Shown here piece by piece: positions 14,912 through 62,025 of a stretch of DNA of 64,000 nt. The notes beneath the pieces are model-generated. The model was not told where the DNA came from. It worked only from the letters and a program-made list of their open reading frames with translations, and searched no databases. The stretch's first letter is position 1. Each line of letters opens with the position of its first letter. The DNA comes from Limnomonas spitsbergensis (taxonomy: Eukaryota; Chlorophyta; Chlorophyceae; Chlamydomonadales): NCBI GenBank assembly GCA_037349105.1, contig JAYJMM010000036.1, positions 6,050,001 through 6,114,000 of the forward strand. The letters run 5' to 3'. The position numbers and the translations under genes are program-made.

Positions 14912-14990
14912 TAAGAGTCTTGCGCTCTGCCAACTGAGCTAACCGGGCAGTCTTCGCCCAATGAGGGGCTCAAACCCTCGACCACAAGAT
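14912..14990 (-). tRNA. trnK-CUU: Permuted tRNA-Lys(CUU), unit 1 (degenerate)
   Basis: The same arrangement as the unit 3 copy at 19182-19260. The T loop reads TTTGAGC, so invariant C56, which pairs with G19, is replaced by T, and the B box is damaged. This edge copy is probably inactive. Confidence 0.6.
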
Positions 14991-16931
14991 TTCACGCTCA
15001 TGACGGTCTCAAACCTGCTCACCAGCCAATCATAGCTTCGTAAACAGTCTCTTTAAAGCCACGGACACGACTGCTCTTGATCACTCTTTCTCCAAGACGA
15101 CGGCAGAATCGGCGACCGAGCCAAGGTGCGGCGAGACACACCGCTTTCACGGAACCCTCTTAAGGACAAGGCCTCCGGGGAGATGACCCTGCAACACGCC
15201 TTGCGTCGTTTAAAAGCAAACGGCTGGCCATATATAGGAGGGCGATTTCAGGAGACCTCTCCCCTCGGCCAAACGACCTGCTCCAACACGCGTCGTTGTT
15301 ATTTCGTCCGGGTGGAACGCTTGTCCTTGGCTGAGGCCGGCGTCCGGAACCACGCCAAAAGCTCAATGGCACCCACTTGAGGGTGTTCGACAGCCGCAAC
15401 CCATAGGAGCTCGCCGTTCACCGACAGCGTTGGCCCACTTTTCTGGGGGCGCGTCAATTAGGCCACCGGGCCCAACCGACCGATCGCCCAAGTCGACCGC
15501 ACCGACCAAGCTCCTCGTCACCACCCTTCGTGGATGGCGCTTCCCGCCATCGATTTGCTGTATGCGAGACTTGAAGGGCCTCGCTCCTACGGTCTTGTGA
15601 GGTTTCTCCTCGTTGTTCCGCTTGGGTAGTTCATGCTTCTTGCCATGCCTATAGGTTGGCTTGTTTCAAGACGCGACTCGAAGAATCGGCGAGCCCATTT
15701 CCGGCAAAGCCTACTGAAATTGGGGCTTGACATGATTGTGCCCCCGGTACACGCCGGGGTTATTTTACATGCTCGTGCAAAGTCCCGGTTCATGTCTTTC
15801 CTTCAAATAACTGATTGCGACTCACATAGCGACTCGGAGATGAACGTTGACCATTAAGTCTATAGTCAAAGTCGTGGACTACTCGTGGTTGTGCCATATC
15901 ATGTTCTTTAGCGTCGAGTTTTGACGCATGTCTTTCAAAGATTTATATTGTATGTGATCGCTTCTCAACTTCTCATTTTTTGATCACATGCATTTGGATC
16001 TCGGTTGTAGTCGAAGAAGGGCCGGTCGAAGACTCGAAAACATCTGCTATAGACAAGTTTCTTACGTTTTTCTGGTATCAACCTCAATCACACGGACTAT
16101 GCAGCATGTGGAGACGCAAAAAGGACACCTGCCACATTGCCGTTTCTACGCCTCCGTCGGTAACTGACAATAAACCTTTGCCGTCGTGCTCATCATAATC
16201 TTGGGGCTGACTAAACTACGGGTAGATAAAATCGTCCCACACTATCGGCCTTTTTAAGAACCTCTGCTTGGCCAGGGCCGGCTACAAAGAGAACCTCGCA
16301 TGTCAAAAACGGTTACTTGGCAGACCCTCGGTGCTTCCCTTGTGCACGGTAAATTCGCACTTTGACATGTCCCCAACATGCATACTGAATATGTTACTAG
16401 TTAAATATTTTGGGGGTGAGCGGGTACATGCGCGATAGAATAACAATTAGCAAAAAGTGTGTGCGGCCGGTCAGTAACAGGCCCAACCAACTATTTTGTC
16501 AGTGCGCGGGGTATTTTCTGTACCTACCATCAAAAACTGATTAAGACTGATTTATGCCACATCCATTCACATATTGCTGACCGTGTACTTTTCTTTCAAG
16601 CATCAAACTAGGTTTTTAAACGAGTCGACAATACGTAGTGGTTGCAAGAGTTGCGCAAAGTAAATTTTACGACTCACAGAAAGTGTTGTTAAATTGCTTG
16701 TTACGAACTTGCTTCGCAACATAACAAGCAACTTGTTTTATAACATACACGTGCACAAAGTAGAGTACTTTTTGCTTGTGCAACAAATTTGATATATTTG
16801 TCATCCAAAGGGGTGCGCGGACTCTATTCGATTTCACGGTACAACTATGGTTGAGTCTGTGCGGACAAGTCGCGATGTACATATCAAGCTCCTAGCACGA
16901 GAGGTTGATAGGCTCCCTCTTAAATATATGA

Positions 16932-16982
16932 GTGCATGTAAGATTCTTGCGCTCTACCATCCCACCCTACCTCACTGGGCAC
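16932..16982 (-). pseudogene. Decayed tRNA 5'-half-like relic (repeated in every unit)
   Basis: On the minus strand it reads GCCCAGT, later GGTAGAGCGCAAGA, then TCTTACATGCAC. This closely follows the intact 5' half and its trailer (GCCCGGT, GGCAGAGCGCAAGA, TCTTACACGCAC). The D arm and anticodon loop are altered and there is no good T arm, only GGAG/CTCC pairing just upstream. It lies 65 nt or more beyond the intact permuted tRNA, at anchor +265 to +315 in each unit. It looks like an old tandem duplicate. Confidence 0.55.
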
Positions 16983-17024
16983 ACTTGGAGGTTTGCATGC
17001 TCCTTGTGCATCCTATTCACCGCT

Positions 17025-17028
17025 AAAA
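17025..17028 (-). terminator. Pol III-type TTTT stop downstream of the permuted tRNA (unit 2 example)
   Basis: TTTT lies 18 nt past the end of the 5' half on the minus strand, the usual position and form of an RNA polymerase III terminator. It recurs at anchor +358 to +361 in the other units. Confidence 0.6.
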
Positions 17029-17046
17029 TGTTTAGGTGCGTGCGTG

Positions 17047-17125
17047 TAAGAGTCTTGCGCTCTGCCAACTGAGCTAACCGGGCAGTCTTCGCCCAATGAG
17101 GGGCTCGAACCCTCGACCACGAGAT
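17047..17125 (-). tRNA. trnK-CUU: Permuted tRNA-Lys(CUU), unit 2
   Basis: 5' half at 17047-17083, spacer 17084-17089, 3' half at 17090-17125. The 3' anticodon strand is TCTCG instead of TCTTG, so pair 28-42 becomes A-C. The flanking GCGTG (17132-17128) and CACGC (17046-17042) are intact. Same variant as units 6 and 7. Confidence 0.75.
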
Positions 17126-19181
17126 TTCACGCTCATGACGGTCTCAAACCTGCTCACCAGCCAATCATAGCTTCGTAAACAGTCTCTTTAAAGCCACGGA
17201 CACGACTGCTCTTGATCACTCTTTCTCCAAGACGACGGCAGAATCGGCGACCGAGCCAAGGTGCGGCGAGACACACCGCTTTCACGGAACCCTCTTAAGG
17301 ACAAGGCCTCCGGGGAGATGACCCTGCAACACGCCTTGCGTCGTTTAAAAGCAAACGGCTGGCCATATATAGGAGGGCGATTTCAGGAGACCTCTCCCCT
17401 CGGCCAAACGACCTGCTCCAACACGCGTCGTTGTTATTTCGTCCGGGTGGAACGCTTGTCCTTGGCTGAAGCCGGCGTCCGGAACCACGCCAAAAGCTTA
17501 ATGGCACCCACTTGAGGGTGTTCGACAGCCGCAACCCATAGGAGCTCGCCGTTCACCGACATCGTTGGCCCACTTTTCCGGGGGCGCGTCAATTAGGCCA
17601 CCGGGCCCAACCGACCGATCGCCCAAGTCGACCGCACCGACCAAGCTCCTCGTCACCACCCTTCGTGGATGGCGCTTCCCGCCATCGATTTGCTGTATGC
17701 GAGACTTGAAGGGCCTCGCTCCTACGGTCTTGTGAGGTTTCTCCTCGTTGTTCCGCTTGGGTAGTTCATGCTTCTTGCCATGCCTATAGGTTGGCTTGTT
17801 TCAAGACGCGACTCGAAGAATCGGCGAGCCCATTTCCGGCAAAGCCTACTGAAATTGGGGCTTGACATGATTGTGCCCCCGGTACACGCCGGGGTTATTT
17901 TACATGCTCGTGCAAAGTCCCGGTCCATGTCTTTCCTTCAAATAACTGATTGCGACTCACATAGCAACTCGGAGATGAACGTTGACCATTAAGTCTATAG
18001 TCAAAGTCGTGGACTACTCGTGGTTGTGCCATATCATGTTCTTTAGAGTCGAGTTTTGACGCATGTCTTTCAAAGATTTATATTGTATGTGATCGCTTCT
18101 CAACTTCTCATTTTTTGATCACATGCATTTGGATCTCGGTTGTAGTCGAAGAAGGGCCGGTCGAAGACTCGAAAACATCTGCTATAGACAAGTATCTTAC
18201 GTTTTTCTGGTATCAACCTCAATCACACGGACTATGCAGCATGTGGAGACGCAAAAAGGACACCTGCCACATTGCCGTTTCTACGCCTCCGTCGGTAACT
18301 GACAATAAACCTTTGCCGTCGTGCTCATCATAATCTTGGGGCTGACTAAACTACGGGTAGATAAAATCGTCCCACACTATCGGCCTTTTTAAGAACCTCT
18401 GCTTGGCCAGGGCCGGCTACAAAGAGAACCTCGCATGTCAAAAACGGTTACTTGGCAGACCCTCGGTGCTTCCCTTGTGCACGGTAAATTCGCACTTTGA
18501 CATGTCCCCAACATGCATACTGAATATGTTACTAGTTAAATATTTTGGGGGTGAGCGGGTACATGCGCGATAGAATAACAATTAGCAAAAAGTGTGTGCG
18601 GCCGGTCAGTAACAGGCCCAACCAACTATTTTGTCAGTGCGCGGGGTATTTTCTGTACCTACCATCAAAAACTGATTAAGACTGATTTATGCCACATCCA
18701 TTCACATATTGCTGACCGTGTACTTTTCTTTCAAGCATCAAACTAGGTTTTTAAACGAGTCGACAATACGTAGTGGTTGCAAGAGTTGCGCAAAGTAAAT
18801 TTTACGACTCACAGAAAGTGTTGTTAAATTGCTTGTTACGAACTTGCTTCGCAACATAACAAGCAACTTGTTTTATAACATACACGTGCACAAAGTAGAG
18901 TACTTTTTGCTTGCGCAACAAATTTGATATATTTGTCATCCAAAGGGGTGCGCGGACTCTATTCGATTTCACGGTACAACTATGGTTGAGTCTGTGCGGA
19001 CAAGTCGCGATGTACATATCAAGCTCCTAGCACGAGAGGTTGATAGGCTCCCTCTTAAATATATGAGTGCATGTAAGATTCTTGCGCTCTACCATCCCAC
19101 CCTACCTCACTGGGCACACTTGGAGGTTTGCATGCTCCTTGTGCATCCTATTCACCGCTAAAATGTTTAGGTGCGTGCGTG

Positions 19182-19260
19182 TAAGAGTCTTGCGCTCTGC
19201 CAACTGAGCTAACCGGGCAGTCTTCGCCCAATGAGGGGCTCGAACCCTCGACCACAAGAT
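19182..19260 (-). tRNA. trnK-CUU: Circularly permuted tRNA-Lys(CUU), unit 3 (consensus copy)
   Basis: Transcribed from the minus strand, the order is 3' half (19260-19225), spacer AAGACT (19224-19219), 5' half (19218-19182). Joined in tRNA order the 73 nt fold fully. Acceptor GCCCGGT pairs with ATTGGGC (two G-U pairs), with discriminator G73. D arm is GCTC/GAGC around AGTTGGCA. Anticodon stem is CAAGA/TCTTG with loop CTCTTAA, anticodon CUU. Variable region is TGGTC. T arm is GAGGG/CCCTC with TTCGAGC. A box TAGCTCAGTTGG and B box GGTTCGAGCCC are intact but in reversed order. The breakpoint falls between positions 37 and 38, the canonical tRNA intron site. Leader GCGTG and trailer CACGC can pair beyond the anticodon stem, resembling a relaxed bulge-helix-bulge. 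It decodes AAG. Expression is unproven. Confidence 0.87.
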
Positions 19261-21315
19261 TTCACGCTCATGACGGTCTCAAACCTGCTCACCAGCCAAT
19301 CATAGCTTCGTAAACAGTCTCTTTAAAGCCACGGACACGACTGCTCTTGATCACTCTTTCTCCAAGACGACGGCAGAATCGGCGACCGAGCCAAGGTGCG
19401 GCGAGACACACCGCTTTCACGGAACCCTCTTAAGGACAAGGCCTCCGGGGAGATGACCCTGCAACACGCCTTGCGTCGTTTAAAAGCAAACGGCTGGCCA
19501 TATATAGGAGGGCGATTTCAGGAGACCTCTCCCCTCGGCCAAACGACCTGCTCCAACACGCGTCGTTGTTATTTCGTCCGGGTGGAACGCTTGTCCTTGG
19601 CTGAAGCCGGCGTCCGGAACCACGCCAAAAGCTTAATGGCACCCACTTGAGGGTGTTCGACAGCCGCAACCCATAGGAGCTCGCCGTTCACCGACAGCGT
19701 TGGCCCACTTTTCCGGGGGCGCGTCAATTAGGCCACCGGGCCCAACCGACCGATCGCCCAAGTCGACCGCACCGACCAAGCTCCTCGTCACCACCCTTCG
19801 TGGATGGCGCTTCCCGCCATCGATTTGCTGTATGCGAGACTTGAAGGGCCTCGCTCCTACGGTCTTGTGAGGTTTCTCCTCGTTGTTCCGCTTGGGTAGT
19901 TCATGCTTCTTGCCATGCCTATAGGTTGGCTTGTTTCAAGACGCGACTCGAAGAATCGGCGAGCCCATTTCCGGCAAAGCCTACTGAAATTGGGGCTTGA
20001 CATGATTGTGCCCCCGGTACACGCCGGGGTTATTTTACATGCTCGTGCAAAGTCCCGGTCCATGTCTTTCCTTCAAATAACTGATTGCGACTCACATAGC
20101 AACTCGGAGATGAACGTTGACCATTAAGTCTATAGTCAAAGTCGTGGACTACTCGTGGTTGTGCCATATCATGTTCTTTAGAGTCGAGTTTTGACGCATG
20201 TCTTTCAAAGATTTATATTGTATGTGATCGCTTCTCAACTTCTCATTTTTTGATCACATGCATTTGGATCTCGGTTGTAGTCGAAGAAGGGCCGGTCGAA
20301 GACTCGAAAACATCTGCTATAGACAAGTATCTTACGTTTTCTGGTATCAACCTCAATCACACGGACTATGCAGCATGTGGAGACGCAAAAAGGACACCTG
20401 CCACATTGCCGTTTCTACGCCTCCGTCGGTAACTGACAATAAACCTTTGCCGTCGTGCTCATCATAATCTTGGGGCTGACTAAACTACGGGTAGATAAAA
20501 TCGTCCCACACTATCGGCCTTTTTAAGAACCTCTGCTTGGCCAGGGCCGGCTACAAAGAGAACCTCGCATGTCAAAAACGGTTACTTGGCAGACCCTCGG
20601 TGCTTCCCTTGTGCACGGTAAATTCGCACTTTGACATGTCCCCAACATGCATACTGAATATGTTACTAGTTAAATATTTTGGGGGTGAGCGGGTACATGC
20701 GCGATAGAATAACAATTAGCAAAAAGTGTGTGCGGCCGGTCAGTAACAGGCCCAACCAACTATTTTGTCAGTGCGCGGGGTATTTTCTGTACCTACCATC
20801 AAAAACTGATTAAGACTGATTTATGCCACATCCATTCACATATTGCTGACCGTGTACTTTTCTTTCAAGCATCAAACTAGGTTTTTAAACGAGTCGACAA
20901 TACGTAGTGGTTGCAAGAGTTGCGCAAAGTAAATTTTACGACTCACAGAAAGTGTTGTTAAATTGCTTGTTACGAACTTGCTTCGCAACATAACAAGCAA
21001 CTTGTTTTATAACATACACGTGCACAAAGTAGAGTACTTTTTGCTTGCGCAACAAATTTGATCTATTTGTCATCCAAAGGGGTGCGCGGACTCTATTCGA
21101 TTTCACGGTACAACTATGGTTGAGTCTGTGCGGACAAGTCGCGATGTACATATCAAGCTCCTAGCACGAGAGGTTGATAGGCTCCCTCTTAAATATATGA
21201 GTGCATGTAAGATTCTTGCGCTCTACCATCCCACCCTACCTCACTGGGCACACTTGGAGGTTTGCATGCTCCTTGTGCATCCTATTCACCGCTAAAATGT
21301 TTAGGTGCGTGCGTG

Positions 21316-21394
21316 TAAGAGTCTTGCGCTCTGCCAACTGAGCTAACCGGGCAGTCTTCGCCCAATGAGGGGCTCGAACCCTCGACCACAAGAT
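21316..21394 (-). tRNA. trnK-CUU: Permuted tRNA-Lys(CUU), unit 4
   Basis: Consensus copy, same halves and spacer as unit 3. Confidence 0.85.
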
Positions 21395-23450
21395 TTCACG
21401 CTCATGACGGTCTCAAACCTGCTCACCAGCCAATCATAGCTTCGTAAACAGTCTCTTTAAAGCCACGGACACGACTGCTCTTGATCACTCTTTCTCCAAG
21501 ACGACGGCAGAATCGGCGACCGAGCCAAGGTGCGGCGAGACACACCGCTTTCACGGAACCCTCTTAAGGACAAGGCCTCCGGGGAGATGACCCTGCAACA
21601 CGCCTTGCGTCGTTTAAAAGCAAACGGCTGGCCATATATAGGAGGGCGATTTCAGGAGACCTCTCCCCTCGGCCAAACGACCTGCTCCAACACGCGTCGT
21701 TGTTATTTCGTCCGGGTGGAACGCTTGTCCTTGGCTGAAGCCGGCGTCCGGAACCACGCCAAAAGCTTAATGGCACCCACTTGAGGGTGTTCGACAGCCG
21801 CAACCCATAGGAGCTCGCCGTTCACCGACAGCGTTGGCCCACTTTTCCGGGGGCGCGTCAATTAGGCCACCGGGCCCAACCGACCGATCGCCCAAGTCGA
21901 CCGCACCGACCAAGCTCCTCGTCACCACCCTTCGTGGATGGCGCTTCCCGCCATCGATTTGCTGTATGCGAGACTTGAAGGGCCTCGCTCCTACGGTCTT
22001 GTGAGGTTTCTCCTCGTTGTTCCGCTTGGGTAGTTCATGCTTCTTGCCATGCCTATAGGTTGGCTTGTTTCAAGACGCGACTCGAAGAATCGGCGAGCCC
22101 ATTTCCGGCAAAGCCTACTGAAATTGGGGCTTGACATGATTGTGCCCCCGGTACACGCCGGGGTTATTTTACATGCTCGTGCAAAGTCCCGGTCCATGTC
22201 TTTCCTTCAAATAACTGATTGCGACTCACATAGCAACTCGGAGATGAACGTTGACCATTAAGTCTATAGTCAAAGTCGTGGACTACTCGTGGTTGTGCCA
22301 TATCATGTTCTTTAGAGTCGAGTTTTGACGCATGTCTTTCAAAGATTTATATTGTATGTGATCGCTTCTCAACTTCTCATTTTTTGATCACATGCATTTG
22401 GATCTCGGTTGTAGTCGAAGAAGGGCCGGTCGAAGACTCGAAAACATCTGCTATAGACAAGTATCTTACGTTTTTCTGGTATCAACCTCAATCACACGGA
22501 CTATGCAGCATGTGGAGACGCAAAAAGGACACCTGCCACATTGCCGTTTCTACGCCTCCGTCGGTAACTGACAATAAACCTTTGCCGTCGTGCTCATCAT
22601 AATCTTGGGGCTGACTAAACTACGGGTAGATAAAATCGTCCCACACTATCGGCCTTTTTAAGAACCTCTGCTTGGCCAGGGCCGGCTACAAAGAGAACCT
22701 CGCATGTCAAAAACGGTTACTTGGCAGACCCTCGGTGCTTCCCTTGTGCACGGTAAATTCGCACTTTGACATGTCCCCAACATGCATACTGAATATGTTA
22801 CTAGTTAAATATTTTGGGGGTGAGCGGGTACATGCGCGATAGAATAACAATTAGCAAAAAGTGTGTGCGGCCGGTCAGTAACAGGCCCAACCAACTATTT
22901 TGTCAGTGCGCGGGGTATTTTCTGTACCTACCATCAAAAACTGATTAAGACTGATTTATGCCACATCCATTCACATATTGCTGACCGTGTACTTTTCTTT
23001 CAAGCATCAAACTAGGTTTTTAAACGAGTCGACAATACGTAGTGGTTGCAAGAGTTGCGCAAAGTAAATTTTACGACTCACAGAAAGTGTTGTTAAATTG
23101 CTTGTTACGAACTTGCTTCGCAACATAACAAGCAACTTGTTTTATAACATACACGTGCACAAAGTAGAGTACTTTTTGCTTGCGCAACAAATTTGATCTA
23201 TTTGTCATCCAAAGGGGTGCGCGGACTCTATTCGATTTCACGGTACAACTATGGTTGAGTCTGTGCGGACAAGTCGCGATGTACATATCAAGCTCCTAGC
23301 ACGAGAGGTTGATAGGCTCCCTCTTAAATATATGAGTGCATGTAAGATTCTTGCGCTCTACCATCCCACCCTACCTCACTGGGCACACTTGGAGGTTTGC
23401 ATGCTCCTTGTGCATCCTATTCACCGCTAAAATGTTTAGGTGCGTGCGTG

Positions 23451-23529
23451 TAAGAGTCTTGCGCTCTGCCAACTGAGCTAACCGGGCAGTCTTCGCCCAA
23501 TGAGGGGCTCGAACCCTCGACCACAAGAT
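23451..23529 (-). tRNA. trnK-CUU: Permuted tRNA-Lys(CUU), unit 5
   Basis: Consensus copy. Confidence 0.85.
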
Positions 23530-25585
23530 TTCACGCTCATGACGGTCTCAAACCTGCTCACCAGCCAATCATAGCTTCGTAAACAGTCTCTTTAAAGCCA
23601 CGGACACGACTGCTCTTGATCACTCTTTCTCCAAGACGACGGCAGAATCGGCGACCGAGCCAAGGTGCGGCGAGACACACCGCTTTCACGGAACCCTCTT
23701 AAGGACAAGGCCTCCGGGGAGATGACCCTGCAACACGCCTTGCGTCGTTTAAAAGCAAACGGCTGGCCATATATAGGAGGGCGATTTCAGGAGACCTCTC
23801 CCCTCGGCCAAACGACCTGCTCCAACACGCGTCGTTGTTATTTCGTCCGGGTGGAACGCTTGTCCTTGGCTGAAGCCGGCGTCCGGAACCACGCCAAAAG
23901 CTTAATGGCACCCACTTGAGGGTGTTCGACAGCCGCAACCCATAGGAGCTCGCCGTTCACCGACAGCGTTGGCCCACTTTTCCGGGGGCACGTCAATTAG
24001 GCCACCGGGCCCAACCGACCGATCGCCCAAGTCGACCGCACCGACCAAGCTCCTCGTCACCACCCTTCGTGGATGGCGCTTCCCGCCATCGATTTGCTGT
24101 ATGCGAGACTTGAAGGGCCTCGCTCCTACGGTCTTGTGAGGTTTCTCCTCGTTGTTCCGCTTGGGTAGTTCATGCTTCTTGCCATGCCTATAGGTTGGCT
24201 TGTTTCAAGACGCGACTCGAAGAATCGGCGAGCCCATTTCCGGCAAAGCCTACTGAAATTGGGGCTTGACATGATTGTGCCCCCGGTACACGCCGGGGTT
24301 ATTTTACATGCTCGTGCAAAGTCCCGGTCCATGTCTTTCCTTCAAATAACTGATTGCGACTCACATAGCAACTCGGAGATGAACGTTGACCATTAAGTCT
24401 ATAGTCAAAGTCGTGGACTACTCGTGGTTGTGCCATATCATGTTCTTTAGAGTCGAGTTTTGACGCATGTCTTTCAAAGATTTATATTGTATGTGATCGC
24501 TTCTCAACTTCTCATTTTTTGATCACATGCATTTGGATCTCGGTTGTAGTCGAAGAAGGGCCGGTCGAAGACTCGAAAACATCTGCTATAGACAAGTATC
24601 TTACGTTTTTCTGGTATCAACCTCAATCACACGGACTATGCAGCATGTGGAGACGCAAAAAGGACACCTGCCACATTGCCGTTTCTACGCCTCCGTCGGT
24701 AACTGACAATAAACCTTTGCCGTCGTGCTCATCATAATCTTGGGGCTGACTAAACTACGGGTAGATAAAATCGTCCCACACTATCGGCCTTTTTAAGAAC
24801 CTCTGCTTGGCCAGGGCCGGCTACAAAGAGAACCTCGCATGTCAAAAACGGTTACTTGGCAGACCCTCGGTGCTTCCCTTGTGCACGGTAAATTCGCACT
24901 TTGACATGTCCCCAACATGCATACTGAATATGTTACTAGTTAAATATTTTGGGGGTGAGCGGGTACATGCGCGATAGAATAACAATTAGCAAAAAGTGTG
25001 TGCGGCCGGTCAGTAACAGGCCCAACCAACTATTTTGTCAGTGCGCGGGGTATTTTCTGTACCTACCATCAAAAACTGATTAAGACTGATTTATGCCACA
25101 TCCATTCACATATTGCTGACCGTGTACTTTTCTTTCAAGCATCAAACTAGGTTTTTAAACGAGTCGACAATACGTAGTGGTTGCAAGAGTTGCGCAAAGT
25201 AAATTTTACGACTCACAGAAAGTGTTGTTAAATTGCTTGTTACGAACTTGCTTCGCAACATAACAAGCAACTTGTTTTATAACATACACGTGCACAAAGT
25301 AGAGTACTTTTTGCTTGCGCAACAAATTTGATCTATTTGTCATCCAAAGGGGTGCGCGGACTCTATTCGATTTCACGGTACAACTATGGTTGAGTCTGTG
25401 CGGACAAGTCGCGATGTACATATCAAGCTCCTAGCACGAGAGGTTGATAGGCTCCCTCTTAAATATATGAGTGCATGTAAGATTCTTGCGCTCTACCATC
25501 CCACCCTACCTCACTGGGCACACTTGGAGGTTTGCATGCTCCTTGTGCATCCTATTCACCGCTAAAATGTTTAGGTGCGTGCGTG

Positions 25586-25664
25586 TAAGAGTCTTGCGCT
25601 CTGCCAACTGAGCTAACCGGGCAGTCTTCGCCCAATGAGGGGCTCGAACCCTCGACCACGAGAT
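25586..25664 (-). tRNA. trnK-CUU: Permuted tRNA-Lys(CUU), unit 6
   Basis: Carries the T42-to-C change (TCTCG) seen in units 2 and 7, giving one mismatch in the anticodon stem; otherwise consensus. Confidence 0.75.
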
Positions 25665-27720: not shown

Positions 27721-27799
27721 TAAGAGTCTTGCGCTCTGCCAACTGAGCTAACCGGGCAGTCTTCGCCCAATGAGGGGCTCGAACCCTCGACCACGAGAT
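27721..27799 (-). tRNA. trnK-CUU: Permuted tRNA-Lys(CUU), unit 7
   Basis: Carries the T42-to-C change shared with units 2 and 6; otherwise consensus. Confidence 0.75.
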
Positions 27800-50998: not shown

Positions 50999-51076
50999 TA
51001 AGAGTCTTGCGCTCTGCCAACTGAGCTAACCGGGCAGTCTTCGCCCAATGAGGGGCTCGAACCCTCGACCAAAGAT
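50999..51076 (-). tRNA. trnK-CUU: Permuted tRNA-Lys(CUU), unit 18 (1-nt deletion)
   Basis: The same single-base loss as unit 16. Confidence 0.65.
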
Positions 51077-53064
51077 TTCACGCTCATGACGGTCTCAAAC
51101 CTGCTCACCAGCCAATCATAGCTTCGTAAACAGTCTCTTTAAAGCCACGGACACGACTGCTCTTGATCACTCTTTCTCCAAGACGACGGCAGAATCGGCG
51201 ACCGAGCCAAGGTGCGGCGAGACACACCGCTTTCACGGAACCCTCTTAAGGACAAGGCCTCCGGGGAGATGACCCTGCAACACGCCTTGCGTCGTTTAAA
51301 AGCAAACGGCTGGCCATATATAGGAGGGCGATTTCAGGAGACCTCTCCCCTCGGCCAAACGACCTGTTCCAACACGCGTCGTTGTTATTTCGTCCGGGTG
51401 GAACGCTTGTCCTTGGCTGAGGCCGGCGTCCGGAACCACGCCAAAAGCTCAATGGCACCCACTTGAGGGTGTTCGACAGCCGCAACCCATAGGAGCTCGC
51501 CGTTCACCGACAGCGTTGGCCCACTTTTCCGGGGGCGCGTCAATTAGGCCACCGGGCCCAACCGACATCGATTTGCTGTATGCGAGACTTGAAGGGCCTC
51601 GCTCCTACGGTCTTGTGAGGTTTCTCCTCGTTGTTCCGCTTGGGTAGTTCATGCTTCTTGCCATGCCTATAGGTTGGCTTGTTTCAAGACGCGACTCGAA
51701 GAATCGGCGAGCCCATTTCCGGCAAAGCCTACTGAAATTGGGGCTTGACATGATTGTGCCCCCGGTACACGCCGGGGTTATTTTACATGCTCGTGCAAAG
51801 TCCCGGTCCATGTCTTTCCTTCAAATAACTGATTGCGACTCACATAGCAACTCGGAGATGAACGTTGACCATTAAGTCTATAGTCAAAGTCGTGGACTAC
51901 TCGTGGTTGTGCCATATCATGTTCTTTAGAGTCGAGTTTTGACGCATGTCTTTCAAAGATTTATATTGTATGTGATCGCTTCTCAACTTCTCATTTTTTG
52001 ATCACATGCATTTGGATCTCGGTTGTAGTCGAAGAAGGGCCGGTCGAAGACTCGAAAACATCTGCTATAGACAAGTATCTTACGTTTTTCTGGTATCAAC
52101 CTCAATCACACGGACTATGCAGCATGTGGAGACGCAAAAAGGACACCTGCCACATTGCCGTTTCTACGCCTCCGTCGGTAACTGACAATAAACCTTTGCC
52201 GTCGTGCTCATCATAATCTTGGGGCTGACTAAACTACGGGTAGATAAAATCGTCCCACACTATCGGCCTTTTTAAGAACCTCTGCTTGGCCAGGGCCGGC
52301 TACAAAGAGAACCTCGCATGTCAAAAACGGTTACTTGGCAGACCCTCGGTGCTTCCCTTGTGCACGGTAAATTCGCACTTTGACATGTCCCCAACATGCA
52401 TACTGAATATGTTACTAGTTAAATATTTTGGGGGTGAGCGGGTACATGCGCGATAGAATAACAATTAGCAAAAAGTGTGTGCGGCCGGTCAGTAACAGGC
52501 CCAACCAACTATTTTGTCAGTGCGCGGGGTATTTTCTGTACCTACCATCAAAAACTGATTAGGACTGATTTATGCCACATCCATTCACATATTGCTGACC
52601 GTGTACTTTTCTTTCAAGCATCAAACTAGGTTTTTAAACGAGTCGACAATACGTAGTGGTTGCAAGAGTTGCGCAAAGTAAATTTTACGACTCACAGAAA
52701 GTGTTGTTAAATTGCTTGTTACGAACTTGCTTCGCAACATAACAAGCAACTTGTTTTATAACATACACGTGCACAAAGTAGAGTACTTTTTGCTTGCGCA
52801 ACAAATTTGATATATTTGTCATCCAAAGGGGTGCGCGGACTCTATTCGATTTCACGGTACAACTATGGTTGAGTCTGTGCGGACAAGTCGCGATGTACAT
52901 ATCAAGCTCCTAGCACGAGAGGTTGATAGGCTCCCTCTTAAATATATGAGTGCATGTAAGATTCTTGCGCTCTACCATCCCACCCTACCTCACTGGGCAC
53001 ACTTGGAGGTTTGCATGCTCCTTGTGCATCCTATTCACCGCTAAAATGTTTAGGTGCGTGCGTG

Positions 53065-53142
53065 TAAGAGTCTTGCGCTCTGCCAACTGAGCTAACCGGG
53101 CAGTCTTCGCCCAATGAGGGGCTCGAACCCTCGACCAAAGAT
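53065..53142 (-). tRNA. trnK-CUU: Permuted tRNA-Lys(CUU), unit 19 (1-nt deletion)
   Basis: The same single-base loss as unit 16. Confidence 0.65.
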
Positions 53143-55130
53143 TTCACGCTCATGACGGTCTCAAACCTGCTCACCAGCCAATCATAGCTTCGTAAACAGT
53201 CTCTTTAAAACCACGGACACGACTGCTCTTGATCACTCTTTCTCCAAGACGACGGCAGAATCGGCGACCGAGCCAAGGTGCGGCGAGACACACCGCTTTC
53301 ACGGAACCCTCTTAAGGACAAGGCCTCCGGGGAGATGACCCTGCAACACGCCTTGCGTCGTTTAAAAGCAAACGGCTGGCCATATATAGGAGGGCGATTT
53401 CAGGAGACCTCTCCCCTCGGCCAAACGACCTGTTCCAACACGCGTCGTTGTTATTTCGTCCGGGTGGAACGCTTGTCCTTGGCTGAGGCCGGCGTCCGGA
53501 ACCACGCCAAAAGCTCAATGGCACCCACTTGAGGGTGTTCGACAGCCGCAACCCATAGGAGCTCGCCGTTCACCGACAGCGTTGGCCCACTTTTCCGGGG
53601 GCGCGTCAATTAGGCCACCGGGCCCAACCGACATCGATTTGCTGTATGCGAGACTTGAAGGGCCTCGCTCCTACGGTCTTGTGAGGTTTCTCCTCGTTGT
53701 TCCGCTTGGGTAGTTCATGCTTCTTGCCATGCCTATAGGTTGGCTTGTTTCAAGACGCGACTCGAAGAATCGGCGAGCCCATTTCCGGCAAAGCCTACTG
53801 AAATTGGGGCTTGACATGATTGTGCCCCCGGTACACGCCGGGGTTATTTTACATGCTCGTGCAAAGTCCCGGTCCATGTCTTTCCTTCAAATAACTGATT
53901 GCGACTCACATAGCAACTCGGAGATGAACGTTGACCATTAAGTCTATAGTCAAAGTCGTGGACTACTCGTGGTTGTGCCATATCATGTTCTTTAGAGTCG
54001 AGTTTTGACGCATGTCTTTCAAAGATTTATATTGTATGTGATCGCTTCTCAACTTCTCATTTTTTGATCACATGCATTTGGATCTCGGTTGTAGTCGAAG
54101 AAGGGCCGGTCGAAGACTCGAAAACATCTGCTATAGACAAGTATCTTACGTTTTTCTGGTATCAACCTCAATCACACGGACTATGCAGCATGTGGAGACG
54201 CAAAAAGGACACCTGCCACATTGCCGTTTCTACGCCTCCGTCGGTAACTGACAATAAACCTTTGCCGTCGTGCTCATCATAATCTTGGGGCTGACTAAAC
54301 TACGGGTAGATAAAATCGTCCCACACTATCGGCCTTTTTAAGAACCTCTGCCTGGCCAGGGCCGGCTACAAAGAGAACCTCGCATGTCAAAAACGGTTAC
54401 TTGGCAGACCCTCGGTGCTTCCCTTGTGCACGGTAAATTCGCACTTTGACATGTCCCCAACATGCATACTGAATATGTTACTAGTTAAATATTTTGGGGG
54501 TGAGCGGGTACATGCGCGATAGAATAACAATTAGCAAAAAGTGTGTGCGGCCGGTCAGTAACAGGCCCAACCAACTATTTTGTCAGTGCGCGGGGTATTT
54601 TCTGTACCTACCATCAAAAACTGATTAGGACTGATTTATGCCACATCCATTCACATATTGCTGACCGTGTACTTTTCTTTCAAGCATCAAACTAGGTTTT
54701 TAAACGAGTCGACAATACGTAGTGGTTGCAAGAGTTGCGCAAAGTAAATTTTACGACTCACAGAAAGTGTTGTTAATTTGCTTGTTACGAACTTGCTTCG
54801 CAACATAACAAGCAACTTGTTTTATAACATACACGTGCACAAAGTAGAGTACTTTTTGCTTGCGCAACAAATTTGATATATTTGTCATCCAAAGGGGTGC
54901 GCGGACTCTATTCGATTTCACGGTACAACTATGGTTGAGTCTGTGCGGACAAGTCGCGATGTACATATCAAGCTCCTAGCACGAGAGGTTGATAGGCTCC
55001 CTCTTAAATATATGAGTGCATGTAAGATTCTTGCGCTCTACCATCCCACCCTACCTCACTGGGCACACTTGGAGGTTTGCATGCTCCTTGTGCATCCTAT
55101 TCACCGCTAAAATGTTTAGGTGCGTGCGTG

Positions 55131-55209
55131 TAAGAGTCTTGCGCTCTGCCAACTGAGCTAACCGGGCAGTCTTCGCCCAATGAGGGGCTCGAACCCTCGA
55201 CCACAAGAT
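55131..55209 (-). tRNA. trnK-CUU: Permuted tRNA-Lys(CUU), unit 20
   Basis: Consensus copy. Confidence 0.85.
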
Positions 55210-57265
55210 TTCACGCTCATGACGGTCTCAAACCTGCTCACCAGCCAATCATAGCTTCGTAAACAGTCTCTTTAAAACCACGGACACGACTGCTCTTGAT
55301 CACTCTTTCTCCAAGACGACGGCAGAATCGGCGACCGAGCCAAGGTGCGGCGAGACACACCGCTTTCACGGAACCCTCTTAAGGACAAGGCCTCCGGGGA
55401 GATGACCCTGCAACACGCCTTGCGTCGTTTAAAAGCAAACGGCTGGCCATATATAGGAGGGCGATTTCAGGAGACCTCTCCCCTCGGCCAAACGACCTGC
55501 TCCAACATGCGTCGTTGTTATTTCGTCCGGGTGGAACGCTTGTCCTTGGCTGAGGCCGGCGTCCGGAACCACGCCAAAAGCTTAATGGCACCCACTTGAG
55601 GGTGTTCGACAGCCGCAACCCATAGGAGCTCGCCGTTCACCGACATCGTTGGCCCACTTTTCCGGGGGCGCGTCAATTAGGCCACCGGGCCCAACCGACC
55701 GATCGCCCAAGTCGACCGCACCGACCAAGCTCCTCGTCACCACCCTTCGTGGATGGCGCTTCCCGCCATCGATTTGCTGTATGCGAGACTTGAAGGGCCT
55801 CGCTCCTACGGTCTTGTGAGGTTTCTCCTCGTTGTTCCGCTTGGGTAGTTCATGATTCTTGCCATGCCTATAGGTTGGCTTGTTTCAAGACGCGACTCGA
55901 AGAATCGGCGAGCCCATTTCCGGCAAAGCCTACTGAAATTGGGGCTTGACATGATTGTGCCCCCGGTACACGCCGGGGTTATTTTACATGCTCGTGCAAA
56001 GTCCCGGTCCATGTCTTTCCTTCAAATAACTGATTGCGACTCACATAGCAACTCGGAGATGAACGTTGACCATTAAGTCTATAGTCAAAGTCGTGGACTA
56101 CTCGTGGTTGTGCCATATCATGTTCTTTAGAGTCGAGTTTTGACGCATGTCTTTCAAAGATTTATATTGTATGTGATCGCTTCTCAACTTCTCATTTTTT
56201 GATCACATGCATTTGGATCTCGGTTGTAGTCGAAGAAGGGCCGGTCGAAGACTCGAAAACATCTGCTATAGACAAGTATCTTACGTTTTTCTGGTATCAA
56301 CCTCAATCACACGGACTATGCAGCATGTGGAGACGCAAAAAGGACACCTGCCACATTGCCGTTTCTACGCCTCCGTCGGTAACTGACAATAAACCTTTGC
56401 CGTCGTGCTCATCATAATCTTGGGGCTGACTAAACTACGGGTAGATAAAATCGTCCCACACTATCGGCCTTTTTAAGAACCTCTGCCTGGCCAGGGCCGG
56501 CTACAAAGAGAACCTCGCATGTCAAAAACGGTTACTTGGCAGACCCTCGGTGCTTCCCTTGTGCACGGTAAATTCGCACTTTGACATGTCCCCAACATGC
56601 ATACTGAATATGTTACTAGTTAAATATTTTGGGGGTGAGCGGGTACATGCGCGATAGAATAACAATTAGCAAAAAGTGTGTGCGGCCGGTCAGTAACAGG
56701 CCCAACCAACTATTTTGTCAGTGCGCGGGGTATTTTCTGTACCTACCATCAAAAACTGATTAGGACTGATTTATGCCACATCCATTCACATATTGCTGAC
56801 CGTGTACTTTTCTTTCAAGCATCAAACTAGGTTTTTAAACGAGTCGACAATACGTAGTGGTTGCAAGAGTTGCGCAAAGTAAATTTTACGACTCACAGAA
56901 AGTGTTGTTAAATTGCTTGTTACGAACTTGCTTCGCAACATAACAAGCAACTTGTTTTATAACATACACGTGCACAAAGTAGAGTACTTTTTGCTTGCGC
57001 AACAAATTTGATATATTTGTCATCCAAAGGGGTGCGCGGACTCTATTCGATTTCACGGTACAACTATGGTTGAGTCTGTGCGGACAAGTCGCGATGTACA
57101 TATCAAGCTCCTAGCACGAGAGGTTGATAGGCTCCCTCTTAAATATATGAGTGCATGTAAGATTCTTGCGCTCTACCATCCCACCCTACCTCACTGGGCA
57201 CACTTGGAGGTTTGCATGCTCCTTGTGCATCCTATTCACCGCTAAAATGTTTAGGTGCGTGCGTG

Positions 57266-57344
57266 TAAGAGTCTTGCGCTCTGCCAACTGAGCTAACCGG
57301 GCAGTCTTCGCCCAATGAGGGGCTCGAACCCTCGACCACAAGAT
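57266..57344 (-). tRNA. trnK-CUU: Permuted tRNA-Lys(CUU), unit 21
   Basis: Consensus copy. The 411-bp duplication of this unit begins 6 nt upstream of it in the transcript sense, so the tRNA itself is single. Confidence 0.85.
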
Positions 57345-57349
57345 TTCAC

Positions 57350-58171
57350 GCTCATGACGGTCTCAGACCTGCTCACCAGCCATTCATAGCTTCGTAAACA
57401 GTCTCTTTAAAGCCACGGACACGACTGCTCTTGATCACTCTTTCTCCAAGACGACGGCAGAATCGGCGACCGAGCCAAGGTGCGGCGAGACACACCGCTT
57501 TCACGGAACCCTCTTAAGGACAAGGCCTCCGGGGAGATGACCCTGCAACACGCCTTGCGTCGTTTAAAAGCAAACGGCTGGCCATATATAGGAGGGCGAT
57601 TTCAGGAGACCTCTCCCCTCGGCCAAACGACCTGCTCCAACACGCGTCGTTGTTATTTCGTCCGGGTGGAACGCTTGTCCTTGGCTGAGGCCGGCGTCCG
57701 GAACCACGCCAAAAGCTCAATGGCACCCACTTGAGGGTGTTCGACAGCCGCAACTCATAGGCTCATGACGGTCTCAGACCTGCTCACCAGCCATTCATAG
57801 CTTCGTAAACAGTCTCTTTAAAGCCACGGACACGACTGCTCTTGATCACTCTTTCTCCAAGACGACGGCAGAATCGGCGACCGAGCCAAGGTGCGGCGAG
57901 ACACACCGCTTTCACGGAACCCTCTTAAGGACAAGGCCTCCGGGGAGATGACCCTGCAACACGCCTTGCGTCGTTTAAAAGCAAACGGCTGGCCATATAT
58001 AGGAGGGCGATTTCAGGAGACCTCTCCCCTCGGCCAAACGACCTGCTCCAACACGCGTCGTTGTTATTTCGTCCGGGTGGAACGCTTGTCCTTGGCTGAG
58101 GCCGGCGTCCGGAACCACGCCAAAAGCTCAATGGCACCCACTTGAGGGTGTTCGACAGCCGCAACCCATAG
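57350..58171. repeat. 411-bp internal tandem duplication in unit 21
   Basis: 57350-57760 is repeated at 57761-58171. The join reads CAACTCATAG|GCTCATGACGG, while the outer end keeps CAACCCATAG|GAGCTCG. Both copies carry the local variant GGTCTCAGACC and CCATTCATAG, which unit 22 also has. Confidence 0.95.
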
Positions 58172-59811
58172 GAGCTCGCCGTTCACCGACAGCGTTGGCC
58201 CACTTTTCCGGGGGCGCGTCAATTAGGCCACCGGGCCCAACCGACTGATCGCCCAAGTCGACCGCACCGACCAAGCTCCTCGTCACCACCCTTCGTGGAT
58301 GGCGCTTCCCGCCATCGATTTGCTGTATGCGAGACTTGAAGGGCCTCGCTCCTACGGTCTTGTGAGGTTTCTCCTCGTTGTTCCGCTTGGGTAGTTCATG
58401 CTTCTTGCCATGCCTATAGGTTGGCTTGTTTCAAGACGCGACTCGAAGAATCGGCGAGCCCATTTCCGGCAAAGCCTACTGAAATTGGGGCTTGACATGA
58501 TTGTGCCCCTGGTACACGCCGGGGTTATTTTACATGCTCGTGCAAAGTCCCGGTTCATGTCTTTCCTTCAAATAACTGATTGCGACTCACATAGCAACTC
58601 GGAGATGAACGTTGACCATTAAGTCTATAGTCAAAGTCGTGGACTACTCGTGGTTGTGCCATATCATGTTCTTTAGAGTCGAGTTTTGACGCATGTCTTT
58701 CAAAGATTTATATTGTATGTGATCGCTTCTCAACTTCTCATTTTTTGATCACATGCATTTGGATCTCGGTTGTAGTCGAAGAAGGGCCGGTCGAAGACTC
58801 GAAAACATCTGCTATAGACAAGTATCTTACGTTTTTCTGGTATCAACCTCAATCACACGGACTATGCAGCATGTGGAGACGCAAAAAGGACACCTGCCAC
58901 ATTGCCGTTTCTACGCCTCCGTCGGTAACTGACAATAAACCTTTGCCGTCGTGCTCATCATAATCTTGGGGCTGACTAAACTACGGGTAGATAAAATCGT
59001 CCCACACTATCGGCCTTTTTAAGAACCTCTGCCTGGCCAGGGCCGGCTACAAAGAGAACCTCGCATGTCAAAAACGGTTACTTGGCAGACCCTCGGTGCT
59101 TCCCTTGTGCACGGTAAATTCGCACTTTGACATGTCCCCAACATGCATACTGAATATGTTACTAGTTAAATATTTTGGGGGTGAGCGGGTACATGCGCGA
59201 TAGAATAACAATTAGCAAAAAGTGTGTGCGGCCGGTCAGTAACAGGCCCAACCAACTATTTTGTCAGTGCGCGGGGTATTTTCTGTACCTACCATCAAAA
59301 ACTGATTAGGACTGATTTATGCCACATCCATTCACATATTGCTGACCGTGTACTTTTCTTTCAAGCATCAAACTAGGTTTTTAAACGAGTCGACAATACG
59401 TAGTGGTTGCAAGAGTTGCGCAAAGTAAATTTTACGACTCACAGAAAGTGTTGTTAAATTGCTTGTTACGAACTTGCTTCGCAACATAACAAGCAACTTG
59501 TTTTATAACATACACGTGCACAAAGTAGAGTACTTTTTGCTTGCGCAACAAATTTGATATATTTGTCATCCAAAGGGGTGCGCGGACTCTATTCGATTTC
59601 ACGGTACAACTATGGTTGAGTCTGTGCGGACAAGTCGCGATGTACATATCAAGCTCCTAGCACGAGAGGTTGATAGGCTCCCTCTTAAATATATGAGTGC
59701 ATGTAAGATTCTTGCGCTCTACCATCCCACCCTACCTCACTGGGCACACTTGGAGGTTTGCATGCTCCTTGTGCATCCTATTCACCGCTAAAATGTTTAG
59801 GTGCGTGCGTG

Positions 59812-59890
59812 TAAGAGTCTTGCGCTCTGCCAACTGAGCTAACCGGGCAGTCTTCGCCCAATGAGGGGCTCGAACCCTCGACCACAAGAT
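59812..59890 (-). tRNA. trnK-CUU: Permuted tRNA-Lys(CUU), unit 22
   Basis: Consensus copy. Confidence 0.85.
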
Positions 59891-61946
59891 TTCACGCTCA
59901 TGACGGTCTCAGACCTGCTCACCAGCCATTCATAGCTTCGTAAACAGTCTCTTTAAAGCCACGGACACGACTGCTCTTGATCACTCTTTCTCCAAGACGA
60001 CGGCAGAATCGGCGACCGAGCCAAGGTGCGGCGAGACACACCGCTTTCACGGAACCCTCTTAAGGACAAGGCCTCCGGGGAGATGACCCTGCAACACGCC
60101 TTGCGTCGTTTAAAAGCAAACGGCTGGCCATATATAGGAGGGCGATTTCAGGAGACCTCTCCCCTCGGCCAAACGACCTGCTCCAACACGCGTCGTTGTT
60201 ATTTCGTCCGGGTGGAACGCTTGTCCTTGGCTGAGGCCGGCGTCCGGAACCACGCCAAAAGCTCAATGGCACCCACTTGAGGGTGTTCGACAGCCGCAAC
60301 CCATAGGAGCTCGCCGTTCACCGACAGCGTTGGCCCACTTTTCCGGGGGCGCGTCAATTAGGCCACCGGGCCCAACCGACTGATCGCCCAAGTCGACCGC
60401 ACCGACCAAGCTCCTCGTCACCACCCTTCGTGGATGGCGCTTCCCGCCATCGATTTGCTGTATGCGAGACTTGAAGGGCCTCGCACCTACGGTCTTGTGA
60501 GGTTTCTCCTCGTTGTTCCGCTTGGGTAGTTCATGCTTCTTGCCATGCCTATAGGTTGGCTTGTTTCAAGACGCGACTCGAAGAATCGGCGAGCCCATTT
60601 CCGGCAAAGCCTACTGAAATTGGGGCTTGACATGATTGTGCCCCTGGTACACGCCGGGGTTATTTTACATGCTCGTGCAAAGTCCCGGTTCATGTCTTTC
60701 CTTCAAATAACTGATTGCGACTCACATAGCAACTCGGAGATGAACGTTGACCATTAAGTCTATAGTCAAAGTCGTGGACTACTCGTGGTTGTGCCATATC
60801 ATGTTCTTTAGAGTCGAGTTTTGACGCATGTCTTTCAAAGATTTATATTGTATGTGATCGCTTCTCAACTTCTCATTTTTTGATCACATGCATTTGGATC
60901 TCGGTTGTAGTCGAAGAAGGGCCGGTCGAAGACTCGAAAACATCTGCTATAGACAAGTATCTTACGTTTTTCTGGTATCAACCTCAATCACACGGACTAT
61001 GCAGCATGTGGAGACGCAAAAAGGACACCTGCCACATTGCCGTTTCTACGCCTCCGTCGGTAACTGACAATAAACCTTTGCCGTCGTGCTCATCATAATC
61101 TTGGGGCTGACTAAACTACGGGTAGATAAAATCGTCCCACACTATCGGCCTTTCTAAGAACCTCTGCTTGGCCAGGGCCGGCTACAAAGAGAACCTCGCA
61201 TGTCAAAAACGGTTACTTGGCAGACCCTCGGTGCTTCCCTTGTGCACGGTAAATTCGCACTTTGACATGTCCCCAACATGCATACTGAATATGTTACTAG
61301 TTAAATATTTTGGGGGTGAGCGGGTACATGCGCGATAGAATAACAATTAGCAAAAAGTGTGTGCGGCCGGTCAGTAACAGGCCCAACCAACTATTTTGTC
61401 AGTGCGCGGGGTATTTTCTGTACCTACCATCAAAAACTGATTAAGACTGATTTATGCCACATCCATTCACATATTGCTGACCGTGTACTTTTCTTTCAAG
61501 CATCAAACTAGGTTTTTAAACGAGTCGACAATACGTAGTGGTTGCAAGAGTTGCGCAAAGTAAATTTTACGACTCACAGAAAGTGTTGTTAAATTGCTTG
61601 TTACGAACTTGCTTCGCAACATAACAAGCAACTTGTTTTATAACATACACGTGCACAAAGTAGAGTACTTTTTGCTTGCGCAACAAATTTGATATATTTG
61701 TCATCCAAAGGGGTGCGCGGACTCTATTCGATTTCACGGTACAACTATGGTTGAGTCTGTGCGGACAAGTCGCGATGTACATATCAAGCTCCTAGCACGA
61801 GAGGTTGATAGGCTCCCTCTTAAATATATGAGTGCATGTAAGATTCTTGCGCTCTACCATCCCACCCTACCTCACTGGGCACACTTGGAGGTTTGCATGC
61901 TCCTTGTGCATCCTATTCACCGCTAAAATGTTTAGGTGCGTGCGTG

Positions 61947-62025
61947 TAAGAGTCTTGCGCTCTGCCAACTGAGCTAACCGGGCAGTCTTCGCTCAATGAG
62001 GGGCTCGAACCCTCGACCACAAGAT
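61947..62025 (-). tRNA. trnK-CUU: Permuted tRNA-Lys(CUU), unit 23 (acceptor-stem change)
   Basis: The 3' acceptor strand reads ATTGAGC instead of ATTGGGC, so C3 faces A70. Otherwise consensus. Unit 24 (63702 onward) leaves the window before its tRNA. Confidence 0.7.

What the first reader, a model, noticed from the sequence alone, without database searches (positions are those of the whole stretch)
14912..62025. Tandem array of circularly permuted tRNA-Lys(CUU) genes
In each of 23 units the minus strand reads T arm and 3' acceptor, a 6-nt spacer, then 5' acceptor, D arm and half anticodon loop. Put in normal order the halves form a complete 73-nt tRNA-Lys(CUU) with every stem paired, G73, and A and B boxes. 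Permuted tRNA genes are known in the red alga Cyanidioschyzon, in some prasinophytes and in a chlorarachniophyte nucleomorph, mostly as single loci. I know of none arranged as a high-copy satellite. Linear tRNA finders would probably report nothing or a pseudogene here.
Basis: partly seen in the sequence, partly recalled or inferred. Interest (0 to 1): 0.96.

Follow-up and report, generated by a model that had tools for sequence, protein, structure and literature searches.

The report
Permuted lysine-tRNA gene satellite array
In this green alga the gene for a lysine transfer RNA is written with its two halves swapped, at about ten scattered places and again in a block of some fifty near-identical repeats, and no normally ordered copy was found, so the cell probably has to make this essential molecule by way of a small RNA circle.

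Summary
The window carries 23 permuted tRNA-Lys(CUU) loci on the minus strand in a 2,135-bp tandem repeat; 15 of 23 are perfect, 16 of 23 have all stems paired. The array runs past the window: 52 loci over 111.6 kb, about 7 kb from an (ATCGGC)n satellite.

The stronger result lies outside the window. The 260-Mb genome holds 10 complete dispersed permuted Lys(CUU) loci with halves 99.7% identical, while the spacer between the halves (36%), leader and trailer (30%) are near random. A second family is permuted Lys(UUU) (6 loci, 5 complete). All 17 loci compared have G at -3, able to pair with C32 (the anticodon-intron pair of eukaryotic tRNA splicing), and TTTT within 22 nt. No linear Lys(CUU) was found; one linear intron-bearing Lys(UUU)-like gene was.

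These are most likely real permuted tRNA genes, processed through a circular intermediate. The array is a satellite grown from a tRNA-Ser/permuted-Lys pair. Its copies are not visibly protected by selection: 30 of 52 carry a change, and the 3' half and leader are the most variable part of the unit. No RNA data were available. New variant of a known kind.

The parts
14514..64000 (-). Part in the window of a 52-locus tandem array (2,135-bp unit; unit homology continues to C36:6176103)
   Evidence: unit-against-region BLAST
14912..14990 (-). permuted tRNA-Lys(CUU) 1: 5' half 14912-14948, then spacer, then 3' half up to 14990; C56 to T
17047..17125 (-). permuted tRNA-Lys(CUU) 2; A28xC42 mismatch
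19182..19260 (-). permuted tRNA-Lys(CUU) 3, perfect (reference copy)
21316..21394 (-). permuted tRNA-Lys(CUU) 4, perfect
23451..23529 (-). permuted tRNA-Lys(CUU) 5, perfect
25586..25664 (-). permuted tRNA-Lys(CUU) 6; A28xC42 mismatch
27721..27799 (-). permuted tRNA-Lys(CUU) 7; A28xC42 mismatch
29856..44879 (-). stretch with permuted tRNA-Lys(CUU) 8 to 15, all perfect, each 79 bp, starting at 29856, 31991, 34126, 36261, 38396, 40531, 42666, 44801
46866..46943 (-). permuted tRNA-Lys(CUU) 16; G43 deleted
48932..49010 (-). permuted tRNA-Lys(CUU) 17, perfect
50999..51076 (-). permuted tRNA-Lys(CUU) 18; G43 deleted
53065..53142 (-). permuted tRNA-Lys(CUU) 19; G43 deleted
55131..55209 (-). permuted tRNA-Lys(CUU) 20, perfect
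57266..57344 (-). permuted tRNA-Lys(CUU) 21, perfect
59812..59890 (-). permuted tRNA-Lys(CUU) 22, perfect
61947..62025 (-). permuted tRNA-Lys(CUU) 23; C3xA70 mismatch
19160..19163 (-). TTTT, candidate Pol III terminator of the reference copy; present in 52 of 52 array loci
17132..17209 (-). decayed tRNA-Ser(AGA) just upstream of a permuted Lys (about 75% identity to the stretches with intact Ser genes at C25 and C110)
   Evidence: BLAST, ARAGORN on the C25 and C110 loci; coordinates worked out from the alignment
19074..19115 (-). decayed second 5'-half-like stretch downstream of the permuted gene (31 nt at 87% in self-comparison)
   Evidence: extent read by eye

Best explanation
These are true circularly permuted (type II, junction 37/38) nuclear tRNA-Lys genes of a green alga. 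Pol III makes a linear precursor in the order leader, 3' half, spacer, 5' half, trailer, ending at the T run (inferred). Leader and trailer lie where the two ends of an ordinary anticodon-loop intron would lie; tRNA splicing endonuclease cuts at 37/38 and ligase joins A37 to A38, making a circle (inferred). RNase P and tRNase Z then cut out the 5-6 nt spacer in the acceptor loop and CCA is added (inferred, by analogy with Cyanidioschyzon and green algae). The dispersed loci are kept by selection and, with the array, are the only Lys(CUU) genes found. The array in the window is a satellite amplified from an old tRNA-Ser/permuted-Lys pair; 22 of its 52 copies still encode a perfect tRNA, and its present contribution to the tRNA pool is unknown.
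For: Ten dispersed Lys(CUU) loci: halves 99.7% identical, with 10 different spacers between them (36%), leader -30 to -11 30%, trailer 30%. Conservation starts at A38 and ends at A37, the canonical splice position. G at -3, opposite C32, in 17 of 17 loci; the 17 include the array once, two decayed loci, and three loci sharing an upstream tRNA-Ser. TTTT within 22 nt of the trailer in 17 of 17 against a shuffled mean of 1.7, maximum 6. AT content rises to 0.70-0.73 at -65 to -45 in 11 loci. A second permuted family, Lys(UUU), with the same layout. No linear Lys(CUU): the 63 Lys 5' halves found within 3 mismatches of the pattern are 52 in the array and 11 dispersed, all in permuted order, one of them (C82:24602) with its 3' half partly deleted; none of the 11 has a 3' half within 207-400 nt downstream. 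Array consensus is identical to the dispersed tRNA while the adjoining tRNA-Ser has fallen to about 75%. A partial tRNA_int_endo match is present (30.0 bits, cut-off 27, 35 of 85 positions).
Against: No RNA evidence. Within the array the tRNA is not under visible purifying selection: 23 of 73 sites segregate against 215 of 2062 elsewhere, and the most variable 79-nt window of the unit covers most of the 3' half and the leader. Leader-trailer pairing is only moderate: 48 of 85 cells against 38 on shuffling, p 0.003, but other registers reach 41-42, and C93 shows none. In the four distinct complete Lys(UUU) loci the spacer is not random (67% identity against 98% for the halves), so the internal control is weaker there. 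A linear intron-bearing Lys(UUU)-like gene exists at C118, so not all lysine tRNAs are permuted. Unconstrained folding of pre-tRNA and of the mature sequence does not give the exact cloverleaf as minimum.
Confidence: 0.87

Rival explanations
1. The array is a dead satellite: it caught a permuted tRNA gene when it formed and now evolves without function, while only the dispersed loci make tRNA. (A rival for the array only; compatible with the best explanation for the dispersed loci.)
For: 30 of 52 copies carry a change, and 97% of 79-nt unit windows have no more segregating sites than the tRNA locus. The upstream tRNA-Ser, a possible promoter source, is decayed. Right-hand copies decay on the side toward an (ATCGGC)n satellite. 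The Arabidopsis SYY cluster is a mostly silent tDNA array with pseudogene-rich flanks (PMC12308677).
Against: Consensus tRNA, -3 G and TTTT are intact, and 22 of 52 copies are perfect. Consensus stayed 73/73 while the adjoining Ser fell to about 75%.
Confidence: 0.5
2. Not tRNA genes but Y-RNA-like (YrlA-type) RNAs: a basal stem plus a tRNA-like domain, working with a Ro60 protein.
For: Rfam YrlA scores 31-47 bits on 6 of 6 dispersed permuted loci given, 47.3 on C110, and 27-33 on two array copies; YrlA has a terminal stem and D, T and acceptor-like arms (PMC8394870 passages).
Against: All scores are below the gathering score of 69; no TROVE/Ro60 domain found in the genome. Y RNAs need no Lys anticodon, no 37/38 boundary and no C32:G(-3) pair (general knowledge), and the genome would then lack a Lys(CUU) gene.
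Confidence: 0.03
3. Relics: halves left by decay of tandem linear tRNA-Lys genes, none functional.
For: Permuted genes are thought to arise from tandem intron-bearing tRNAs (PMC3978253 section 10); a linear intron-bearing Lys-like gene and decayed halves exist here.
Against: Halves 99.7% identical at 10 loci with randomised spacers and flanks; no linear replacement for Lys(CUU) found.
Confidence: 0.04
4. The array acts as a chromatin boundary between unique sequence and the large hexamer satellite, independent of tRNA output.
For: It ends about 7 kb from 40.8 kb of (ATCGGC)n that runs to the end of the stretches read; a human tRNA tandem repeat is proposed as a boundary element (PMC4041453, search listing only).
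Against: Position only; no functional evidence; sites of the T arm (B box) are among those that vary most.
Confidence: 0.1

Closest known systems
Circularly permuted tRNA genes of Cyanidioschyzon, prasinophytes, Bigelowiella nucleomorph, Thermofilum (PMC3978253: sections 5, 6, 8 and the first parts of 4 and 10 read)
   Same: 3' half before 5' half, junction 37/38 (type II, the usual green-algal type), short intervening sequence, downstream T run, AT-rich upstream; an extra 5' half downstream is reported for O. lucimarinus tRNA-Cys, as in the unit here
   Different: 34 genes listed in all, one or two per isoacceptor and species; the only Lys is Lys(TTT) of C. merolae with junction 59/60. Here Lys(CUU) and Lys(UUU), multicopy, dispersed and in a satellite
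Permuted tRNA genes of Auxenochlorella (PMC12633428, four passages seen)
   Same: Permuted tRNAs in a green alga that is not a prasinophyte (its class recalled)
   Different: Passages give no copy number or array; isotypes are in a figure I could not see
Arabidopsis SYY tRNA-Ser/Tyr cluster (PMC12308677, abstract and one section read)
   Same: Tandem tDNA array with a homogeneous core, pseudogene-rich flanks and separate dispersed genes; includes Ser
   Different: Linear genes, different isotypes
Entamoeba tRNA arrays (PMC2652664, abstract and outline seen)
   Same: tRNA genes as units of tandem arrays
   Different: Almost all tRNA genes are in arrays; no permuted genes mentioned in the abstract
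YrlA bacterial Y RNA (RF02553; PMC8394870 passages)
   Same: Terminal stem plus tRNA-like arms; sub-threshold covariance score
   Different: Below gathering score, no Ro60 gene found, complete tRNA-Lys here

Membership tests
Circularly permuted tRNA gene, type II | 3' half upstream of 5' half with an intervening sequence | tested here: met
   23 of 23 in window, 52 loci in the array of which the last three lack 8 nt, 10 complete dispersed loci of 11 found by the 5'-half pattern
Circularly permuted tRNA gene, type II | Rejoined halves give a complete cloverleaf with conserved tRNA bases | tested here: met
   21 of 21 stem pairs formed in the consensus; 22 of 52 array copies and 9 of 10 complete dispersed loci identical to it, C110 differing by one D-loop base
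Circularly permuted tRNA gene, type II | Junction at 37/38 with splicing-endonuclease features | tested here: met
   conservation boundary at 37/38 and G(-3) in 17 of 17
Circularly permuted tRNA gene, type II | hBH/BHB motif formed by leader and trailer | tested here: inconclusive
   48 of 85 cells pair, shuffled 38, p 0.003; other registers 41-42; absent in C93
Circularly permuted tRNA gene, type II | Downstream T run, upstream TATA-like or AT-rich stretch | tested here: met
   TTTT 17 of 17; AT-rich stretch over 11 loci taken together, TATA-like words in some only
Circularly permuted tRNA gene, type II | Circular intermediate and charged mature tRNA | not testable with these tools
   no RNA data
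YrlA Y RNA | Rfam gathering score | tested here: not met
   best 47.3 against 69
YrlA Y RNA | Ro60/TROVE protein in genome | tested here: not met
   0 candidates; exons split by introns could be missed

The most novel reading that the evidence does not exclude
In this alga every tRNA with the anticodon for AAG comes from permuted genes, so translation as a whole depends on RNA circularisation; and the satellite is transcribed, making a large pool of circular pre-tRNA-Lys, with substitutions piling up at the start of the transcript because of that transcription or because surplus copies are selected to be silenced.
Probability: 0.3. Interest if true: 0.9.

Novelty: new variant of a known kind. 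Interest (0 to 1): 0.77.

Why it matters
Permuted tRNA genes have been listed as rare oddities, one or two per isoacceptor and species. Here a whole isoacceptor, that for one of the two lysine codons, appears to exist only in permuted form, spread over unlinked loci and amplified into a satellite, in a large green-algal genome, with a linear intron-bearing Lys gene still present. With many loci whose leaders, trailers and spacers have drifted, nature has done a mutagenesis of what the splicing machinery needs: the G at -3 is fixed, the Lys(CUU) spacer is free. That makes the origin and the substrate rules of permuted tRNAs directly testable, and warns that linear tRNA finders can miss essential genes.

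Tried and rejected
Other permuted isotypes: pattern searches with TAGCTCAG (53 hits, all Lys; reversed control 0), TAGYVNAR (32 hits against 26 for the reversed control) and TGGYNNAR (297 and 126 hits against 72 and 48 for the reversed control, only about the first hundred of each listed; much of the excess is Lys loci, a tRNA-like repeat and a microsatellite). I checked 57 non-Lys strings for acceptor pairing; none has 6 or more of 7 pairs, two have 5, both Lys controls have 7. Left out of that check: most strings of the tRNA-like repeat tail (two kept), a microsatellite on C9, duplicates, Ser-Lys junctions, Lys copies, and everything not listed. So other permuted isotypes are not excluded.

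Linear Lys: AGAGCNNNNGACTYTTAATC has no exact hit and three hits with one mismatch, of which one is a linear intron-bearing Lys(UUU)-like tRNA and two gave no tRNA with ARAGORN; four of the two-mismatch hits fetched gave none either. Of its 137 hits only about the first hundred were listed, in order of mismatches. Of 57 RF00005 matches (63 of 8791 candidates scored) I fetched 40; ARAGORN named none Lys, left several unnamed and one without a gene. A linear Lys(CUU) with a diverged body and an intron is therefore not excluded.

Function of the rest of the unit: no stop-to-stop frame over 110 aa, no Rfam match at gathering score. Pfam found nothing in three left-flank ORFs. The decayed second 5' half has no CM match.

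Taxon: LHCII-type proteins place it in the green lineage. The top E-values go to longer proteins of mixed algae and land plants; the highest identities are 84% to unnamed proteins and 82% to Chlamydomonas eustigma among named ones. Class not settled.
Full report
What is in the window. The minus strand holds 23 permuted tRNA-Lys(CUU) loci, mostly at 2,135-bp spacing, with five shorter units (2,065-2,067 bp) and one longer one (2,546 bp). The 5' half (1-37) is perfect in 23 of 23; the whole locus is perfect in 15 of 23, and all stems are paired in 16 of 23. The changes are A28xC42 (3 units), loss of G43 (3), C56 to T (1) and C3xA70 (1). ARAGORN finds no tRNA in the window and Rfam nothing at gathering score.

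The whole array. The window is C36:6050001-6114000 of a 260-Mb, 124-contig genome. The array has 52 loci, C36:6064912-6175500, unit homology 6064514-6176103. 22 of 52 copies are perfect; the last three lack 8 nt and have 3 or 4 mismatches. The last nine leader bases are GAGCGTGAA in 52 of 52, and a TTTT follows in 52 of 52. Beyond the array lie short repeats and then (ATCGGC)n from 6183181 to 6224000, the end of the stretches read; the contig is 6224886 long.

Dispersed loci. A pattern for the 5' half running into a linear 3' half, up to 3 mismatches, gave 64 hits: 52 in the array, 11 dispersed, and one unrelated tRNA. Of the 11, 10 are complete permuted loci (C25 twice, C19, C65, C110, C62, C82, C109, C112 twice) and one (C82:24602) has lost part of its T arm and acceptor. 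A further, decayed one lies on C120. Among the 10, the halves are 99.7% identical; the spacer, which sits between them, differs in all ten (36% identity), and leader (-30 to -11) and trailer are at 30%. This built-in control shows selection on both halves in the permuted order and suggests that the loci are old, not fresh copies.

A second family. The generic pattern gave 53 hits and none for the reversed pattern: 36 array, 10 dispersed Lys(CUU), C120, and 6 of a second family. That family is tRNA-Lys(UUU): C75 twice (a duplicate with identical flanks), C93, C105, C112, C119; C112 has a damaged anticodon loop. Two of the other five have an A50xC64 mismatch by my reading of the sequences. In the four distinct complete loci the halves are 98.4% identical and the spacer 67%, so here the spacer is partly conserved.

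Processing signals. In 17 of 17 loci (C75 duplicate dropped; array counted once; C120 and the damaged C112 kept) the base at -3 is G, able to pair with C32. This matches the anticodon-intron pair used by eukaryotic splicing endonuclease; the review speaks of A.I base pairs, while the exact position 32:-3 is recalled and was not looked up. Leader-trailer pairing in the register with A37 opposite -4 is 48 of 85 cells, 38.2 on shuffling trailers (p 0.003), but registers -5 and +4 reach 41 and 42. TTTT occurs within 22 nt in 17 of 17, shuffled mean 1.7. AT content peaks at 0.73 at -65 to -55 over 11 loci. At C25 and C110 a linear tRNA-Ser(AGA) ends about 6 nt before A38, so there a joint Ser-Lys transcript is likely (inference); this would supply internal promoter boxes that the permuted gene has in the wrong order.

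No linear Lys(CUU). A perfect linear copy would have topped the search with the rejoined tRNA; each best match listed is a half (40 of 62 candidates scored). None of the 11 dispersed 5' halves has a 3' half in the 207-400 nt downstream. A diverged linear gene with an intron could have escaped; the search meant for identical halves with an intron did not complete. A linear Lys(UUU)-like gene with a 13-nt intron exists on C118 (ARAGORN; RF00005 50.2 bits).

Origin and present state of the array. Just upstream of the array copy examined is a stretch about 75% identical to the tRNA-Ser stretches of C25 and C110, and downstream a decayed second 5' half. So the unit most likely descends from a Ser-permuted-Lys pair. 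The Lys consensus is unchanged while Ser has decayed, which argues for selection on Lys before or during amplification. Now the picture differs: in 51 aligned units, 23 of 73 tRNA sites segregate against 215 of 2062 others (Fisher p 1.5e-6, treating sites as independent). The excess is in the 3' half (17 of 36) and leader (11 of 40), not in the 5' half (6 of 37) or trailer (4 of 40). I cannot explain this; transcription-linked mutation and selection against surplus copies are both possible.

Rivals. YrlA-like scores (27-47 bits, gathering 69) probably reflect a shared topology: terminal stem and tRNA-like arms. No TROVE protein was found. One partial tRNA_int_endo match over the cut-off was found.

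Organism. 111 chlorophyll a/b-binding domain matches show a photosynthetic eukaryote, and the LHC protein read is of the LHCII type of the green lineage. The class was not settled.

Literature. Searches for 'permuted tRNA' alone (45 papers, 40 listed), with 'green alga' from 2015 (6, 5 listed), with 'Chlamydomonas' (7, 6 listed), with 'tandem repeat' and 'array' (2, 1 listed), and for tRNA-Lys satellite arrays (1) showed no permuted tRNA satellite and no permuted Lys(CUU) in the listings, passages and sections seen; the library lacks most subscription papers. The Soma review (sections 5, 6, 8 and the first parts of 4 and 10) says Chlamydomonas reinhardtii has no permuted tRNAs. Only passages were seen of PMC12633428, PMC13353863, PMC12652284, PMC8394870, PMC10085705 and PMC4033280.

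Verdict. The permuted genes are real and probably essential; the array is a real satellite of such genes, partly decayed, activity unknown.

Noticed in passing
C75, C93, C105, C112, C119 (L062-L067): Second permuted tRNA family, Lys(UUU), six loci, one with a damaged anticodon loop.
   Followed up: yes
C118:2305628-2305714 (L111:59-145): Linear tRNA-Lys(UUU)-like gene with a 13-nt intron in the anticodon loop and, by eye, G at -3; possible relic of the ancestral form.
   Followed up: partly
L086 and L095 (C54, C112): Linear tRNAs with anticodons CUA and UCA that resemble each other, high RF00005 scores (61.4 and 54.9 bits); function not worked out.
   Followed up: no
e.g. L096-L105; strings: Dispersed tRNA-like repeat (GGTTCCGTAGCTC...) with a shared downstream tail, SINE-like.
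   Followed up: no
C36:6183181-6224000 (L017-L020, L054): Hexamer satellite (ATCGGC)n fills 40.8 kb next to the array, up to the end of the stretches read.
   Followed up: partly
window 57350-58172: A 411-bp tandem duplication inside one array unit.
   Followed up: no
C36:6133334-6137023: One array unit is 3,690 bp long, with extra sequence of unknown nature.
   Followed up: no
111 chlorophyll a/b-binding domain matches, several close together on one contig (e.g. C109, C110), some with an in-frame TAG.
   Followed up: no
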